From NCBI GenBank assembly GCA_016839385.1, contig JAEOUK010000742.1, positions 1-5,177 of the forward strand: a stretch of 5,177 nucleotides of DNA. The letters run 5' to 3'. The stretch comes from Promethearchaeota archaeon (lineage in GTDB: Archaea > Asgardarchaeota > Lokiarchaeia > Sigynarchaeales > MK-D1). Shown here one piece after another: positions 1-5,177 of this stretch; the stretch's first letter is position 1, and each line of letters starts with the position of its first letter. The notes under the pieces were generated by a model. It saw nothing but the letters and a program-made list of their open reading frames with translations. It was not told where the DNA came from and did no database searches. The position numbers and the translations under genes are program-made.

Positions 1-280
1 ATAATCCGAAGAATAAAATCATATAGATACAATTTGGAATTAATTGCTTACGCATCATTGTTCTATAAGTTTGCATCGCTTCAGCTTGTAGACGTTGTAA
101 AGCGACTGGGTCATCGCGTACCGCCATCATTTCTTCTTGCATATCTTTAAGTTTTTGCTGCAAATCCATTGACTGTTGAGGCCTCATACCGAAAAAGTAT
201 CGATATAACTGAGATATAGTAGTCATACCGACACAAATACCTAAAATCCAAAGATATTGAGCAGTACCAGCTGGAATCAT
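1..280 (-). CDS. EMC3/DUF106-family membrane protein insertase (C-terminus outside window)
   Basis: The first 93 residues are visible, reading leftward from an ATG at 280. An in-frame TGA at 287-289 leaves no usable earlier start. Residues 8-30 form a hydrophobic transmembrane segment (AQYLWILGICVG and on). Residues 35-75 form a charged, Met/Gln-rich cytoplasmic coiled coil. At 76-93 the 'MMRKQLIP' motif leads into a second membrane segment cut by the window edge. This order of membrane helix, cytosolic helical hairpin and 'P..IYMILFF' segment is characteristic of archaeal DUF106 proteins. These belong to the Oxa1/YidC/EMC3/GET1 superfamily and are thought to insert or assist membrane proteins co-translationally. 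Archaeal members are usually about 170-200 residues, so roughly half is missing here. No Shine-Dalgarno sequence precedes the ATG. It lies 87 bp downstream of the DUF35 gene on the same strand, probably with its own promoter, although read-through is possible. Confidence 0.87.
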   Translation of the reverse strand, partial: MIPAGTAQYLWILGICVGMTTISQLYRYFFGMRPQQSMDLQQKLKDMQEEMMAVRDDPVALQRLQAEAMQTYRTMMRKQLIPNCIYMILFFGL

Positions 281-323
281 AATTATTCAAAACTGACTAG
301 TGAAGTAGTTGTAATGAATTAAT

Positions 324-331
324 ACTATAAA
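324..331 (-). promoter_or_regulatory. Candidate TATA box for the DUF106/EMC3 gene
   Basis: Read on the minus strand the site is TTTATAGT, centred about 48 bases upstream of the ATG at 280. Archaeal transcription normally starts about 25 bases downstream of the TATA centre, which would place the start near 300 and give a leader of about 20 nt. No good BRE is seen, because the flank is a run of T. The match is reasonable but AT-rich sequence gives such matches easily. Confidence 0.4.
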
Positions 332-353
332 AAAAAGTTTCAGAATGAAAAAA
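329..353 (-). terminator. Candidate T-rich archaeal terminator after the thiolase/DUF35 unit
   Basis: Reading leftward past the DUF35 stop at 368, the minus strand shows a run of six T (353-348) and then eight T (336-329). Archaeal termination commonly needs only such oligo-T tracts without a strong hairpin, and no hairpin is seen here. The second tract abuts the candidate TATA box of the next gene, so terminator and promoter would be nearly superimposed. Confidence 0.45.
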
Positions 354-367
354 CTAGAAAATAAGGT

Positions 368-793
368 TTATGCGGGTTCAAATCCCAAGTCAATTTTTGG
401 CTCTTTTCCTTCTATTTCGACGGTGATAAATTTCATCTTTACAGGCAAACCAACTTTGATATTATCAGAATTTTGTTCAAATCCCTCAGGACCAATTATA
501 TGACCTGAAATGTGCGGTCCTTCTTCTAATTTTACAACTCCAAAGCAATAAGGTTTTTTAATACTGTATCCTTGACCTGCGAAATAACGTGCACCTACAC
601 CTATTAAAGAAAAGGATTCCAAGGTTCCTTTCCCGCTAAATTCAAACCATTCAAGCTCTGTTTCATAGCATTTATTGCAAATTTTCTTCGGAGGAATGTG
701 TATTGCACCACATTTTTTACATTTGTTTCCCATTAATTTGTTTTCCTGGAAGAAATCGAAGTAATTCTTTATAGTAAACTCTTTTTCACTCAT
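368..793 (-). CDS. DUF35 zinc-ribbon/OB-fold acyl-CoA-associated protein, thiolase partner
   Basis: This 141-residue protein has the two-part DUF35 layout. An N-terminal helix with a rubredoxin-like zinc ribbon (Cys25, Cys28, Cys39, Cys42; 'CKKCG' and 'CNKC') is followed by a beta-rich OB-fold at about 47-138 with the typical 'GKGTLESFSLI' and 'PYCFGVVKLEEGPHISGHI' strands. Family knowledge: in archaea DUF35 proteins bridge acetoacetyl-CoA thiolase and HMG-CoA synthase and shuttle the acyl-CoA intermediate between them. Relatives accompany thiolase-like enzymes in other lipid and sterol pathways. Immediate pairing with the thiolase upstream (12-nt gap) supports that role. The start is fixed by a strong Shine-Dalgarno sequence seven bases before the ATG. 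Length is normal and all four zinc ligands are present. The protein is expected to be cytosolic. The DUF35 family is sure; the exact pathway is inferred. Confidence 0.93.
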   Translation of the reverse strand: MSEKEFTIKNYFDFFQENKLMGNKCKKCGAIHIPPKKICNKCYETELEWFEFSGKGTLESFSLIGVGARYFAGQGYSIKKPYCFGVVKLEEGPHISGHIIGPEGFEQNSDNIKVGLPVKMKFITVEIEGKEPKIDLGFEPA

Positions 794-800
794 CTTAGTT

Positions 801-807
801 ACCTCCT
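801..807 (-). promoter_or_regulatory. Strong Shine-Dalgarno site deciding the DUF35 start, overlapping the thiolase stop
   Basis: On the minus strand AGGAGGT lies seven bases before the ATG at 793. Its first two bases are the last two bases of the thiolase stop codon TAG (808-806), so ribosomes ending on the thiolase sit directly on the next ribosome-binding site. Such overlap favours coupled translation and balanced production of the two partners. It contrasts with the other starts in the window, which have no or only weak Shine-Dalgarno sequences. Confidence 0.8.
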
Positions 808-2068
808 ATTTTTCATATATGTGGACAATTGCGGTTGCACCACTTCCACCCACATTGTGAGTCAATGCTCGTTCTACATCAAATTTCACTTGTCGATTAC
901 GTTCCGCAATACCCCGCATCTGTTTGAAAACTTCCACTGCTTGTGCGGTACCGGTCGCACCTACAGGGTGCCCCTTGGTCTTTAAACCACCACTTGTATT
1001 AATTGGTAGATTACCATCTCGCTTTGTTTCCCCTGCAGATACTGCTGGAGCTGCTTCTCCGGGTTTATAGAACCCAATATCTTCCATTGCTACTAATTCT
1101 GCAATAGTAAAACAGTCATGTACTTCAGCCATTTGAATGTCTTTTGGTTCAAGACCACTAATTTTGAAAGCGGTTTCGGAGGCATATCTTGCGGATAGGA
1201 ATGAGGTAAACGAGTCTCGATCATGCAAGGACAATGTATCGCTTCCCTGTCCGGTTCCTGTGATCCAAATAGGGGTATCTGTATATTTCTTCGCTACTTC
1301 CTCAGATGCTAATAGAACACACGCTGCTCCATCAGTAACCAGAGAGCAATCAAACAATCTTAACGGATTTGCGATGTAAGGATTAGCACTTGATTGTAGA
1401 AAATCATAAGGGGTGTTCCATGTTGGAGCTTCTAATCCCTTTTCTTTTGCTTTATCTATTTTTGATTGCATTACTTGTTCAATTGTTTGTTGAACTTGGG
1501 CAAATGGATTTTCAGCACCATTTTCATAATTTTTAATTGCAACATCGAAAAGATTTTGGTCTGTCGTGCCATATTTATGCATATGTGCTGTTGCTACAGT
1601 GGCGTATAAACCCGGAAATGTTGCACCTGCTGGATATTCTAGTCGTGTATCTGCTGCAGCTGCTAAAGCGTCTGTTACATCAACCGTTGGAACTTCAGTC
1701 ATTGTTTCAACACCCCCTACCATTACGAAGTCATGAACACCAGATGCTACTGCTAAAACTCCGTATCGTAAAGCAATTCCACTTGATGAACATGCTGCTT
1801 CAATGCGAGCTGCTGGTTTTGGAATAATTCCTGCTAGTTGTGCCATTAATGGTGCCAAATGAGCTTCATGATTGAATAAATCCGCCGAAAAATTCCCTAA
1901 ATATAATTCCTCAACATCTTTTGCTAAATCCACTCCATTATCAACGCTATTGATTGTATTAATGAGAGCATCTTGCCAAAGATCTCGATTTTGCTTAATG
2001 GGGAAGTGTGCTCCAAATTTACTCATACCTGCTCCCACCATTGCAACCTTACGTGCTAGTTTAGCCAT
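806..2068 (-). CDS. Archaeal thiolase (acetyl-CoA C-acetyltransferase type, SCP2-thiolase-like)
   Basis: A 420-residue thiolase. The nucleophilic Cys is Cys93 in 'EAACSSSG'. The C-terminal half carries 'HDCF' (His317, Cys319), 'NTSGG' (357-361) and 'GHPVGATG' (His367). The last motif region is 'HNVGGSG' (404-410), where bacterial biosynthetic thiolases have a CxG cysteine. In the SCP2/archaeal branch the HDCF cysteine is taken to serve as acid/base instead, so the enzyme looks complete. It would condense two acetyl-CoA to acetoacetyl-CoA, or cleave 3-ketoacyl-CoA, in the cytosol. With the DUF35 partner directly downstream, the first step of mevalonate/isoprenoid synthesis is the likeliest role; beta-oxidation-type use is the alternative. 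It is somewhat longer than typical archaeal members of about 390 residues, with the extra, lysine-rich helical stretch at about 190-225. The start ATG has no Shine-Dalgarno sequence, consistent with a leaderless or short-leader mRNA. Confidence 0.93.
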   Translation of the reverse strand: MAKLARKVAMVGAGMSKFGAHFPIKQNRDLWQDALINTINSVDNGVDLAKDVEELYLGNFSADLFNHEAHLAPLMAQLAGIIPKPAARIEAACSSSGIALRYGVLAVASGVHDFVMVGGVETMTEVPTVDVTDALAAAADTRLEYPAGATFPGLYATVATAHMHKYGTTDQNLFDVAIKNYENGAENPFAQVQQTIEQVMQSKIDKAKEKGLEAPTWNTPYDFLQSSANPYIANPLRLFDCSLVTDGAACVLLASEEVAKKYTDTPIWITGTGQGSDTLSLHDRDSFTSFLSARYASETAFKISGLEPKDIQMAEVHDCFTIAELVAMEDIGFYKPGEAAPAVSAGETKRDGNLPINTSGGLKTKGHPVGATGTAQAVEVFKQMRGIAERNRQVKFDVERALTHNVGGSGATAIVHIYEK

Positions 2069-2127: not shown

Positions 2128-2264
2128 GACTTACATTACATTTTTTGAAGTTGGATAAGGAATTGTCCCTCTCATTTAGAAAAGAAAAGTCCGTATTTTA
2201 TCGGCTTAAGTCTCTACTCTTTGAAAAATTGGTATGAATTGGCAATAAGCTTTATAAGTTGGAC

Positions 2265-2349: not shown

Positions 2350-3627
2350 ATGACCGAGAAAGACAGTACTAATAAGAAAATATTATGTATGATGGATGAA
2401 TTCGTGCAGTTTCAGTCCATATTTGAGATGTTATCGGATGCAAGTTTGGATAAAAAGGTCTCAATCTTAAATCCTCGAATGTTTCTTGTTCAAGATTCCA
2501 TCGGTTCTGAATTTATAGATTTCTTTCGGGAAGAAATCCTTAAAAAATTCCCGATTCGCGAGATAATTTGTAATATTAAAAAGCTCGATAAGCAAATGGA
2601 AGAAATTGAAAGCATTTTTGAAAAATCAGATGAAGAAGAATCAGACAATATTGATGAGGAGCATAAAACCCAAAATTCAACTCAGATTAATGCGAAATTA
2701 TTAGGTAAAACGATCCTTTTCATAAACAACCCAGAATTTCAGACTGTAGAAGATAAAGAACGAATAGTCGAAATTTCTACATTCCTTTCTAAAAAGATTA
2801 AGGATAATCTTGAATTTTATTTTGTTTTAAGGCTAGAACACAGCGAATTTCCTAGAGAGTTGGTTAATCTGTTTGATTTCACATTTGTTATCCCCTATCC
2901 TTCAAAAATTCAACGCATAAATATCTTTGAATCCCTTCTAGAACAACTAAATATCCATACAGTTGATATAACTCATTTGGCAGACCTTACCGAAGATAAA
3001 TGGAATGTTTTAGATCTTAAACGGTTAGTAGATCGAGCATTCATTCAATGGAAATTACTCAATTATACAGAATATAAAATTAGAGCTCACAATGAAGATT
3101 ATACAGATAAAGATCAAATTGAAGCAGAAGATGAAGAACAACAGAAAAAATCCATTCCAAAACCTGTAAATATATTGAATGGAATTCCCAAAATCCCGTT
3201 AACAGGGGAAATCTTTTCAAATCTTATAATAACAGGTAAAATTCGACCATTAAGTTTACATAATTCATATAAATTCATTGAAACCCCTCCAATTGAGAAT
3301 AATATAGAGTCAAAAATTGATCAACAATCCCCTTCTTACTCGAAGAATATCCCAGGATCAACTAATTCATTTGAAGGATTGGGAATCTCAGAAATTGATA
3401 GCTTCACATCCTCTCAACTCTATCAATATGCTGCTGCGAATAAATTTGAAGAGTTAACTTCAACCTTGGAAAAACTGGATCAAGGTAAAAAGCTTGATGA
3501 AGTTGATCGAATAGTATTGGCCGATTTTGCTTTTATCTTGAAAGATCCTCCTAACCGTGCATTATTAAAACTGACTAATGCAAGAAAAACCATTGATCGA
3601 ATCTTTAAACTGCAAAAAGGCAAATAA
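2350..3627 (+). CDS. Degenerate (pseudo-enzyme) AAA+ ATPase-like protein, upstream partner of SMC
   Basis: A 425-residue protein with a recognisable but inactive-looking AAA+ domain at about 10-240. The P-loop position is 'QDSIGSEF' (48-55), which aligns with GPPGTGKT; the lysine is Glu54 and the Thr is Phe55. The Walker B strand 'TILFINNPE' (121-129) lacks the Asp-Glu pair. The sensor-1 strand 'FYFVLRLEH' (156-164) lacks the Asn. At 171-177 'LVNLFDF' lacks the arginine fingers, yet 'FVIPYPSKIQRINIF' (179-193) and the lid helices (205-235, 'DLKRLVDRA') match classical AAA proteins well. Acidic stretches lie at 82-105 and 248-264. A Pro-rich linker spans 268-345 and a helical C-terminal domain 346-425. 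No signal peptide or membrane segment is seen. It probably does not hydrolyse ATP. Ending one base before the SMC start, it is likely co-translated and may act as an SMC accessory, scaffold or loader. That role is inferred from position. An in-frame TGA at 2344-2346 fixes the start region. Confidence 0.82.
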   Translation: MTEKDSTNKKILCMMDEFVQFQSIFEMLSDASLDKKVSILNPRMFLVQDSIGSEFIDFFREEILKKFPIREIICNIKKLDKQMEEIESIFEKSDEEESDNIDEEHKTQNSTQINAKLLGKTILFINNPEFQTVEDKERIVEISTFLSKKIKDNLEFYFVLRLEHSEFPRELVNLFDFTFVIPYPSKIQRINIFESLLEQLNIHTVDITHLADLTEDKWNVLDLKRLVDRAFIQWKLLNYTEYKIRAHNEDYTDKDQIEAEDEEQQKKSIPKPVNILNGIPKIPLTGEIFSNLIITGKIRPLSLHNSYKFIETPPIENNIESKIDQQSPSYSKNIPGSTNSFEGLGISEIDSFTSSQLYQYAAANKFEELTSTLEKLDQGKKLDEVDRIVLADFAFILKDPPNRALLKLTNARKTIDRIFKLQKGK

Positions 3628-3628
3628 T

Positions 3629-5177
3629 ATGGCTACACGACCTAAAATCGAACGAATAATCCTTAATAACTTCAATTCTTTTAAGGTAGATGAAGTTCCG
3701 TTTAATAAAAGGTTCACCGTAATAACCGGACCAAACGGAGCAGGTAAATCCACCATATTTCAAGGGATCAAGTTCTCTTTAGGTTCAAATGAGAAAGATG
3801 GACGTGCAAAAGTATGGTCAGATTTCATTCGGATTGGACAAAAAGCAGGTTATGCTGAAGTTCATTTTCGAGAAAAAAAAAATATTATCAAAATTCGAAG
3901 GACTATCATAAAAGGGCAAGCACCGTACTTTCAGATACAAGAAGCTTCAGACAAAAAATTAAAAAAATGCACCGTTTCCAGAATACAATCAATCCTTCAT
4001 GAATTTGATATTAATCCGGATAATGTGTTCGCTTTTGTTTCTCAAGGCAATATTACAGCAATTAAAAACATGGAAAAGAAAGAAATTTGTGATTATCTTG
4101 AAAAAGGATTAGGATTGTTTCCTTTGCGAACCGAGATTCTGGACACCAAAGCAACAATTCAAGATTTAGAAGCACAAATTCATAGTTTACAGATGCTTGA
4201 TAAAACAGCTACTTACGAACTAAACATATTAGCACCTCAAATCACACGTTTACAAGAAAAAAAGGTCCTAGAATCAGATCGCGACCATTTAGAGAAAGAA
4301 CGAATTTGGTTAAATCGAGCAAAAATTCAAGAAGAAATCCACCAAATTCAAGAAGAAATCAAAAAACTAGAATCTAACGTTACTAAATTGGAGGAAGACA
4401 AAAACTCGGTCAATATTACTATAACACGTTTAGAAGAATCAGTTAAAGAAAGTAATGTTAAAATTTCTGAATTGACCCAGACGATAATGGATGAGAAAAT
4501 TAAGGAAAAAAATCTGGATCTAGAAATTGATCGTTGGCAATCGGATAAAAATAACTACGGAGATAAGATTCTTCGAACAAAAAGTAAAATTAAAGTTCTA
4601 ACTGCAGAAAAAAAACGCTTCATAGAAGATCAAAAAATTTGCTTAGCAGAGATAAAAAAATACAAATTCGAGCTATCACTTCTGAATCAACAACGGAAAT
4701 CTCTATTAGATGAATTTGAATCTCATCAAAAGACCCGAAAGAAATATCAGTCAATTATGGGTAAATATGAAGAATTGAAAAAGAAAAAAGATGCTTTTGA
4801 ATTGAGTTCAAAAGAAAAAATCTTAGAAATTGAAGCGATAGACAGAGATATTCAAAGTTGTATGAATGAAATTCGGTATCTTCGACAAGAGTTAGAGAAA
4901 GATAAGTGGTATCTTAAGGATCCAGAAAAAAATACAATGGAATCACTCAACCAGAAGAAGCGCAAAATCAATTTTGCGCTAGAAAAATTATCAAGAAACT
5001 CAAACGAAGTGGAAATTGACAATAAAGAACTTGATAAACAAGTTGAACGACTAAAAAGTTCTGTGTTGATGAAAGAATTACCCAAAAGTCAAGCTATTTT
5101 GAACTTGATAAAGGAAATTCAATTGCGGAACTTGGATGTGATTGGTCCAATTATCGATTACATTGAATTTAAGCCTG
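3629..5177 (+). CDS. smc: SMC-family chromosome organisation ATPase (N-terminal half; runs off window)
   Basis: The frame stays open for 516 codons to the window end. The head begins 'PKIERIILNNFNSFK', followed by Walker A GPNGAGKST (34-42), the head segment 'RAKVWSDFIRIG' (59-70) and the Q-loop 'VSQGNIT' (137-143). The SMC-type switch to coiled coil follows ('EICDYLEKGLGL', 152-163). A long, Lys/Glu-rich coiled coil runs from about 168 to 488. The last residues, 'NLDVIGPIIDYIEF' (501-514), look like the first strand of an SMC hinge rather than a Rad50 zinc hook, which has a CxxC. Arm length therefore matches a full SMC of about 1150-1200 residues. SMC dimers use ATP to compact, segregate or repair DNA. 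Canonical SMC proteins usually end Walker A with GKSN; GKST here hints at a divergent or paralogous subfamily. The start lies one base after the upstream stop, with a weak AAAGG eight bases before it. Signature motif and Walker B lie outside. Confidence 0.92.
   Translation, partial: MATRPKIERIILNNFNSFKVDEVPFNKRFTVITGPNGAGKSTIFQGIKFSLGSNEKDGRAKVWSDFIRIGQKAGYAEVHFREKKNIIKIRRTIIKGQAPYFQIQEASDKKLKKCTVSRIQSILHEFDINPDNVFAFVSQGNITAIKNMEKKEICDYLEKGLGLFPLRTEILDTKATIQDLEAQIHSLQMLDKTATYELNILAPQITRLQEKKVLESDRDHLEKERIWLNRAKIQEEIHQIQEEIKKLESNVTKLEEDKNSVNITITRLEESVKESNVKISELTQTIMDEKIKEKNLDLEIDRWQSDKNNYGDKILRTKSKIKVLTAEKKRFIEDQKICLAEIKKYKFELSLLNQQRKSLLDEFESHQKTRKKYQSIMGKYEELKKKKDAFELSSKEKILEIEAIDRDIQSCMNEIRYLRQELEKDKWYLKDPEKNTMESLNQKKRKINFALEKLSRNSNEVEIDNKELDKQVERLKSSVLMKELPKSQAILNLIKEIQLRNLDVIGPIIDYIEFKP
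4322..4363 (+). repeat. Tandem 21-bp heptad duplication inside the SMC coiled coil
   Basis: The 17-base word AAATTCAAGAAGAAATC occurs at 4323-4339 and again at 4344-4360, exactly 21 bases apart. In protein this gives KIQEEIH (232-238) followed by QIQEEIK (239-245), one coiled-coil heptad duplicated in register. Synonymous positions are identical too, which suggests a recent slippage-type duplication rather than selection on the protein alone. Confidence 0.8.

What the first reader, a model, noticed from the sequence alone, without database searches (positions are those of the whole stretch)
2350..5177. Pseudo-AAA+ and SMC form a coupled operon: possible new SMC accessory system
The stop of the AAA+-like gene and the ATG of the SMC gene are one base apart on the same strand, with one promoter region upstream. 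Archaeal and bacterial smc genes are often next to kleisin genes (scpA/scpB), but here the adjacent upstream partner is a catalytically dead AAA+ protein with an acidic linker and a separate helical C-terminal domain. Tight coupling suggests stoichiometric production and a shared complex, perhaps a loader, a kleisin-like bridge or a regulator of head engagement.
Basis: inference. Interest (0 to 1): 0.78.

Follow-up and report, generated by a model that had tools for sequence, protein, structure and literature searches.

The report
Dead AAA+ protein paired with SMC
In many Asgard archaea, the closest known relatives of eukaryotes, a gene for a catalytically dead AAA+ protein sits directly before the gene of a second, non-canonical SMC chromosome-organising protein, and a related lineage still has an ATP-binding version at the same spot, so the pair looks like a new SMC machine with a dedicated AAA+-derived partner.

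Summary
The window (Lokiarchaeota-type Asgard fragment) has a 425-aa AAA+-fold protein without catalytic AAA+ motifs (2350-3627) and an SMC gene starting one base after its stop. The pair is widespread: of 227 genomes of the phylum, 106 carry the AAA-like gene and 111 the operon-type SMC; in 102 of 104 with both they are adjacent, and every exception lies at a contig end. A kleisin-like gene follows in 46 of 46 loci with room, a KITE-like gene in 43; both assignments are weak by sequence. The two genomes read also hold a canonical SMC operon, so this is a second SMC system. In Jordarchaeia/Freyarchaeota the same slot holds an AAA+ with Walker A, sensor 1 and arginine finger but Asn for the Walker B Glu; G054 has a full set. 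The SMC is distinct from canonical SMC and shares a head signature with SMC5/6; its branching is unresolved. Best reading: a non-catalytic adaptor/loader-type partner of an SMC5/6-like complex. Physical contact is untested. The idea that the AAA-like protein replaces the kleisin is not supported.

The parts
2250..2258 (+). TATA-like stretch CTTTATAAG in the 281-bp divergent intergenic region, about 92 nt before the pseudo-AAA start (candidate promoter element, untested)
   Evidence: read from the sequence; the sigma-70 scan found nothing and does not cover archaeal promoters
2350..3627 (+). pseudo-AAA+ gene, 425 aa, first gene of the conserved row
   Evidence: AAA fold:
2494..2520 (+). degenerate P-loop DSIGSEFID (residues 49-57) at the Walker A place
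2710..2736 (+). degenerate Walker B TILFINNPE (residues 121-129)
2890..3054 (+). conserved strand after sensor 1 and AAA lid (residues 181-235, IPYPSKIQRI ... RAFIQWK)
3391..3621 (+). C-terminal helical domain (residues 348-424), the most widely matched part of the family, related to the C-terminus of the Jordarchaeia/Freyarchaeota AAA+
3628..3628 (+). one-base intercistronic gap
3629..5177 (+). SMC gene (operon type), truncated by the window end; 1128 aa in L001 and L002
3728..3751 (+). intact SMC Walker A GPNGAGKS
   Evidence: read

Best explanation
The window holds the first two genes of a conserved Asgard row: pseudo-AAA+ / SMC / kleisin-like / KITE-like. It encodes a second SMC system, separate from canonical SMC-ScpAB and SMC5/6-like in some features, with a dedicated AAA+-derived partner. 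Related loci show a series: a full catalytic set in G054, an ATP-binding form with Asn in place of the catalytic Walker B Glu in Jordarchaeia/Freyarchaeota, and a form without any of these motifs in the lineages of the window. What the dead form keeps is the lid and above all the C-terminal helical domain. Most likely the protein docks on its SMC complex through these parts and acts as a non-catalytic adaptor/loader or regulator of the SMC ATPase cycle, in the role that Nse5/6 has in eukaryotic SMC5/6; the ATP-binding forms may act as a nucleotide-controlled switch or remodeller. Shown: the gene family, motif loss in the members checked, the gene row, its distribution, the ATP-binding-type homologues. 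Inferred: physical contact, the role, the direction of loss.
For: Adjacency: 62 of 62 loci compared (window, L001, L002, L045-L103; L045-L103 were picked by their pseudo-AAA) have the SMC next to the pseudo-AAA on the same strand. Phylum-wide 104 of 227 genomes have both, 102 adjacent, the two others at contig ends. Kleisin-like gene in 46 of 46 loci with at least 1.5 kb of room (45 directly after SMC), KITE-like in 43 of 46. Pseudo-enzyme. AAA+ with Walker A in the same slot, with SMC, kleisin-like and KITE-like genes: L142-L145; C-terminal domains related, hhalign E 3.3e-6, probability 87.8; organism names Freyarchaeota/Jordarchaeaceae. Second SMC system: canonical SMC, ScpA-like and ScpB genes elsewhere in G001 and G002 (ScpB 1.9e-34). 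Distinct SMC family: 848-1443 bits for full-length genes against at most 328 for full-length canonical SMC; tree splits op 100, SMC5/6-like 98, canonical 100 without Rad50.
Against: No contact was predicted or measured. Kleisin homology is weak: profile against ScpA in the PDB E 0.6-1.4, hhalign E 0.1 against canonical Asgard ScpA, Foldseek E 0.13 at best, model pTM 0.38. KITE homology is weak too: 2 of 23 members match PF04079 at E <= 0.1 (best 1.2e-6, the other 0.018 and under the cut-off), no ScpB in the PDB search, hhalign against two canonical ScpB not significant. SMC5/6 affinity is not proven: the AU test keeps all three rootings, and PDB profile scores are higher for SMC2, SMC3 and SMC4 than for SMC5/6. 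The Jordarchaeia SMC scores only 313-334 bits on the operon SMC profile, in the range of canonical SMC, and groups with SMC5/6-like sequences rather than with the pseudo-AAA-linked SMC, so its operon may not be a simple orthologue. In G054 (L141) the AAA+ lacks the C-terminal domain, no kleisin-like gene was found and KITE is marginal (5e-4). Motif loss was checked in the aligned and scanned members (41 in A4, 16 in A6, 62 ORFs by regex, overlapping sets), not in all 106 genomes.
Confidence: 0.58

Rival explanations
1. The pseudo-AAA is an inactive subunit of a mixed ring with an active Vps4/Cdc48-type ATPase encoded elsewhere, and so ties this SMC system to ESCRT or Cdc48 machinery (for example removal of SMC from chromatin or coupling to division).
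For: Fold and homologues belong to the Vps4/Cdc48 class; AAA rings with inactive members are known (recalled). AAA matches in open frames of about 740-780 aa, probably Cdc48, occur in the same phylum.
Against: Arginine finger is lost in 16 of 16 pseudo members of A6 and sensor-1 Asn in 15 of 16. The conserved neighbour is SMC; no ESCRT gene was recognised by eye among the ORFs of L001 and L002, though none was searched for.
Confidence: 0.15
2. An anti-plasmid or antiviral SMC system of the Wadjet/Lamassu kind, with the AAA-like protein as sensor or effector.
For: KITE-type SMC systems include Wadjet (PMC10512200, passages). The SMC of L001 matches mad3 (2.2e-33), LmuB (3.4e-25) and, over coiled coil, JetC (1.2e-12); the Jordarchaeia AAA+ matches IetA (2.9e-37). 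These can be general ATPase similarities.
Against: The pseudo-AAA and the KITE-like protein have no PADLOC hit, the kleisin-like protein only a marginal AbiEii one. The pair is found in about half of the genomes searched, with a fixed order. A JetD-like gene was not searched for outside the operon proteins.
Confidence: 0.11
3. Co-expression only: the AAA-like protein shares the transcript but works apart from SMC.
For: No contact data; operons can hold unrelated genes.
Against: The pair stays together although distant AAA-like members share only about 20% identity with the window protein, while other neighbours change (thiolase, OB/Zn-ribbon and EMC3-like genes only in some loci).
Confidence: 0.13
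4. Decaying gene: the AAA-like ORF is a degenerating copy without function.
For: Loss of catalytic motifs; one match with an internal stop was listed (G100).
Against: Matches in open frames in over 100 genomes and conservation of lid and C-terminal domain.
Confidence: 0.03

Closest known systems
Eukaryotic SMC5/6 complex (Smc5, Smc6, Nse4 kleisin, Nse1/Nse3 KITE, Nse5/6 loader)
   Same: SMC with kleisin-like and KITE-like partner genes; proline at the H-loop place of the SMC head as in SMC5 and SMC6; extra subunit
   Different: one SMC gene in the row; extra partner is AAA-derived; no Nse2-like gene recognised by eye in L001/L002; tree position unresolved
Bacterial/archaeal SMC-ScpA-ScpB
   Same: SMC, kleisin-like and KITE-like genes in a row
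   Different: SMC family distinct from canonical SMC, which has its own ScpA-like and ScpB genes in G001 and G002; starts with an AAA-like gene; kleisin and KITE hardly recognisable against ScpA/ScpB
[quoted passage not shown]
   Same: a second, non-canonical SMC type of Archaea that groups with SMC5/6; possibly the same SMCs
Vps4/CdvC and Cdc48 AAA+ ATPases
   Same: fold and lid; nearest solved structures
   Different: catalytic motifs lost; C-terminal domain not covered by the matches; linked to SMC
MukBEF/MksBEF/Wadjet
   Same: KITE-type SMC systems with accessory factors
   Different: the pseudo-AAA, kleisin-like and KITE-like proteins match no Jet model; the SMC matches JetC only weakly over coiled coil

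Membership tests
AAA+ ATPase (classical AAA, Vps4/Cdc48 class) | AAA fold with lid | tested here: met
AAA+ ATPase (classical AAA, Vps4/Cdc48 class) | Walker A lysine | tested here: not met
   no K in that column in 41 of 41 rows of A4 and 16 of 16 pseudo rows of A6; a Walker A regex matched 1 of 62 ORFs, at residue 114 of L072, outside the P-loop place
AAA+ ATPase (classical AAA, Vps4/Cdc48 class) | Walker B DE pair, sensor-1 Asn, arginine finger | tested here: not met
   pseudo rows of A6: DE pair 0 of 16, sensor-1 Asn 1 of 16 (L151), arginine 0 of 16. Homologues in the same slot: Jordarchaeia DN, N, R (5 of 5), G054 DE, N, R
SMC proteins | N-terminal Walker A head, C-terminal signature and Walker B, hinge, coiled coils | tested here: met
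   window: Walker A, SMC_N 6.9e-11. Whole gene in L001: SMC_N 1e-27, LSGGEQ, DEAQMFLD; hinge PF06470 5.6e-4, 20.7 bits against a cut-off of 22.5
Canonical archaeal/bacterial SMC | groups with canonical SMC by score and in a tree | tested here: not met
   scores; separate split, support 100
SMC5/6 clade | branches with SMC5/6 | tested here: inconclusive
   support 58 with Rad50 as root; AU p 0.52, 0.44, 0.49 for the three rootings
SMC5/6 clade | proline at the H-loop place, as in SMC5/6 rows | tested here: met
   14 of 14 operon-type rows, 4 of 4 Jordarchaeia, G054, 4 of 4 eukaryotic SMC5/6; 1 of 21 canonical rows (L174); 0 of 7 in the L153-L159 group; column invariant in 22 of 22 rows of A5
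KITE (ScpB-like) | tandem winged helix related to ScpB | tested here: inconclusive
   2 of 23 members match PF04079 at E <= 0.1, best 1.2e-6 (L088 0.018, under the cut-off); no ScpB hit in the PDB; hhalign to two canonical ScpB E 0.73
Kleisin | N-terminal helical domain and C-terminal winged helix that bridge SMC heads | tested here: inconclusive
Wadjet | JetA and JetB (kleisin and KITE) models match | tested here: not met
   no Jet hit for the kleisin-like, KITE-like or pseudo-AAA protein of L001/window at E <= 0.001
Wadjet | JetD nuclease gene | not tested
   only operon proteins were scanned

The most novel reading that the evidence does not exclude
Asgard archaea carry an SMC5/6-type complex whose ancient fourth component is a Vps4/Cdc48-class AAA+ protein that loads, removes or switches it. 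The series full ATPase motifs (G054), ATP-binding but without the catalytic glutamate (Jordarchaeia/Freyarchaeota), dead scaffold (the window's lineages) records its loss of catalysis. It would be an SMC complex with a dedicated AAA+ partner, a kind I know of nowhere else, and a candidate archaeal forerunner of SMC5/6.
Probability: 0.3. Interest if true: 0.9.

Novelty: new variant of a known kind. Interest (0 to 1): 0.75.

Why it matters
SMC complexes differ mainly in their accessory subunits, and the path from archaeal SMC to the three eukaryotic complexes is open. An Asgard SMC row with kleisin-like, KITE-like and AAA+-derived partners gives a concrete candidate for an archaeal SMC5/6-like machine and a possible new class of SMC regulator. 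The natural series from full AAA+ motifs to none, at the same place beside SMC, makes the role of that partner testable with purified proteins.

Tried and rejected
Viral relatives of the pseudo-AAA: none by pattern search. Kleisin role for the pseudo-AAA: rejected, a separate kleisin-like gene follows. Filing under Wadjet: not borne out. SMC5/6 membership by tree: not achieved; one long Rad50 branch does not root it, and FastTree placed Rad50 inside the SMC5/6-like group. PDB profile scores do not favour SMC5/6; canonical Loki SMC falls off more sharply towards SMC5 (45-46 bits, against up to 169 for SMC1-4 and 369 for prokaryotic SMC; SMC6 not listed at 1e-10). Kleisin and KITE profiles against ScpA/ScpB: weak. 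The second AlphaFold job went to the kleisin-like protein, with a low-confidence result. No complex modelling was possible. In the VIA looks families not listed are not excluded.

Rows dropped before counts: itself reports a match in 227 of 227 genomes, many of them AAA background. For one search I copied by hand the rows that reach the C-terminal domain (plus G094, cut by its contig end) and left out rows that match only the AAA part (G033, G054, G078-G081, G160, then longer AAA proteins). From I kept rows of 334 bits or more and dropped the rest (canonical SMCs and at least one short operon-type piece, G109:C304). G055 (346 bits over 720 positions, contig start) is counted as operon type but may be a divergent type. 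Both listings were cut off, so counts may be low. In one search two operon SMCs (L094, L098) had no C-terminal head extracted because their signature differs (their printed ends also show the proline), and SMC2/SMC3 rows had N-terminal heads only. L174, labelled canonical, is very divergent. L140 (G033) holds an AAA+ with Walker A but no SMC match in its 3450 bases. The kleisin and KITE profiles were built partly from the loci counted.

Not in print: searches listed no paper that by title or abstract treats an AAA-SMC operon in Asgard archaea; they cover only openly licensed PMC papers, and Yoshinaga and Inagaki 2021 was not held.
Full report
What is in the window. On the minus strand lie an EMC3-like fragment (2-280), a ChsH2-like Zn-ribbon/OB protein (368-793) and a thiolase (806-2068); on the plus strand the 425-aa protein (2350-3627) and an SMC gene from 3629 that runs off the end. 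Where sources name the organism of a relative, it is Lokiarchaeota/Promethearchaeota. No whole genome is held for the window.

The pair is conserved. A first profile matched 89 of 227 genomes of the phylum. I fetched the neighbourhoods of 59 of these (L045-L103). With window, L001 and L002, 62 of 62 loci have the SMC directly after the pseudo-AAA on the same strand; with starts picked mechanically 52 gaps are 1 to 55 bases, six 251-312, and four negative, the window among these (its real gap is 1). With a broader profile (A4) and an SMC profile (A5), 106 genomes have the AAA-like gene, 111 the operon-type SMC, 104 both, and 102 of these adjacent (from rows chosen as told under Tried and rejected). 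The exceptions are contig ends: in G202 an SMC piece follows the pseudo-AAA up to the contig end, in G094 the pseudo-AAA itself is cut; the two genomes with the AAA-like gene only (G128, G146) have SMC pieces of 71 and 97 aa after it; in the seven with SMC only, SMC begins at the contig end. I saw no genome in which the two are separated. The handles that carry the pair fall in blocks, but the tool tells no taxonomy.

A second SMC system. G001 and G002 also carry a canonical SMC (1478 and 1473 aa) next to ScpA-like and ScpB genes (ScpB 1.9e-34; the ScpA-like gene has no Pfam hit at 0.01). Archaeal ScpA proteins tested did not bind ScpB, and 480 of 640 archaeal genomes lacked a readily detectable ScpB (PMC7055376, abstract and passages), so a conserved KITE-like gene here would be notable.

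What kind of SMC. On the A5 profile, full-length operon-type genes score 848-1443 bits and full-length canonical ones at most 328; Jordarchaeia SMCs score 313-334. A head-domain tree (57 sequences, 365 columns) separates canonical SMC with bacterial SMC and SMC2/3, operon-type SMC, and a group of SMC5, SMC6, Jordarchaeia, G054 and L153-L159 SMCs (supports 100, 100, 98 without Rad50). Which two are sisters is not resolved (AU p 0.52, 0.44, 0.49). A proline at the H-loop place is shared by 14 of 14 operon-type, 4 of 4 Jordarchaeia, the G054 and 4 of 4 eukaryotic SMC5/6 rows, against 1 of 21 canonical and 0 of 7 L153-L159 rows. PMC9389158 (passages) reports canonical and SMC5/6-related archaeal SMCs, the latter grouping with SMC5/6 at 100%; the operon SMCs may be among them, which I could not check.

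The ATP-binding relatives. In G078-G081 and G160 (L142-L146) the gene before SMC is an AAA+ with GRPGTGKT/GRSGTGKT, sensor TN, and WTRFD/WPRFD, but FIDNFD in Walker B, that is Asn for the catalytic Glu, in 5 of 5 (PF00004 4.6e-23). In L142-L145 an 831-841-aa SMC, a kleisin-like gene (E 8e-10 to 2e-8) and a KITE-like gene (E 6e-19 to 2e-20) follow. The C-terminal domain is related to that of the pseudo-AAA (hhalign E 3.3e-6, probability 87.8, 60 columns). A protein search gave 11 relatives at E <= 1e-60; sources name the organism for 4 of them, Freyarchaeota, Jordarchaeaceae, Jordarchaeum and Freyarchaeum; FIDNFD is found in 10 of the 11 by regex. G054 (L141) has an AAA+ of 301 aa with a full set (GPPGTGKT, FIDEFD, TN, WRRFD) before a 1067-aa SMC, without the C-terminal domain. 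Loss of motifs is easier than regain, so the dead form is best read as derived; no AAA tree was made.

How it may work (inference). KITE-type SMC complexes have loader or unloader proteins, such as Nse5/6 and MatP (PMC10512200, passages). The lid and C-terminal domain are what was kept when ATP chemistry was lost; this fits a docking surface for the SMC complex and a role as non-catalytic loader or regulator. The ATP-binding form without the catalytic Glu would fit a nucleotide-dependent switch. Contact is the untested step.

Novelty. Nine literature searches listed no paper that by title or abstract treats an AAA-SMC operon in Asgard archaea; in the Asgard review PMC12993045 the one passage on SMC is general. 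I file it as a new variant of a known kind: an SMC system of kleisin/KITE type with a new, AAA-derived partner.

Noticed in passing
L107:4557-8132 (-), genome G002: A single 1191-aa ORF joins an Mre11-like nuclease to a Rad50-like ATPase (by eye) in a Lokiarchaeota MAG.
   Followed up: no
L153, L154, L156, L158 (genomes G172, G167, G171, G165); SMC also in L155, L157, L159: Another Asgard group has a 1054-1080-aa SMC with SMC6-like DEFDVFLD/DEFDVYLD-type motif, followed in the four loci read by kleisin-sized and KITE-sized genes, a primase-large-subunit-like gene, a ThiF/E1-like gene and a coiled-coil protein; in L154 and L159 a coiled-coil ORF weakly matches the Jordarchaeia AAA+ profile (E 1.1e-5, 6e-6). 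No other match to the AAA profiles there; in L158 JAMM-like and ubiquitin-like genes lie near. Labels by eye.
   Followed up: partly
L105:5184-9620 (-), L106:6767-11188 (+): The canonical SMC of these Lokiarchaeota-type genomes is unusually long (1473-1478 aa; open frames of 1482-1514 aa in 18 further genomes).
   Followed up: no
21 of 119 genomes (e.g. G009, G011, G014, G017, G019, G040): No match to the canonical Loki SMC at E <= 0.001; these genomes may lack canonical SMC or have a divergent one.
   Followed up: no
window 2-2068 (-); L083, L094, L101, L088: Thiolase and Zn-ribbon/OB genes lie divergently upstream of the row also in L001, L002, L083 and L094 (thiolase piece alone in L101, at its contig end), and a thiolase piece follows the KITE-like gene in L088.
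   Followed up: partly
L047, L062, L085, L086, L091, L095, L096: The KITE-like gene is displaced 1 to 5 kb downstream of the kleisin-like gene; what lies between was not read.
   Followed up: no
L174 (G175:C60): A divergent SMC on its own long branch near canonical SMC but with the SMC5/6-like proline (ITPR).
   Followed up: no
L142-L146, P0014-P0024: The Jordarchaeia/Freyarchaeota AAA+ keeps Walker A, sensor 1 and arginine finger but has Asn for the catalytic Walker B Glu, as if kept for ATP binding without fast hydrolysis.
   Followed up: partly
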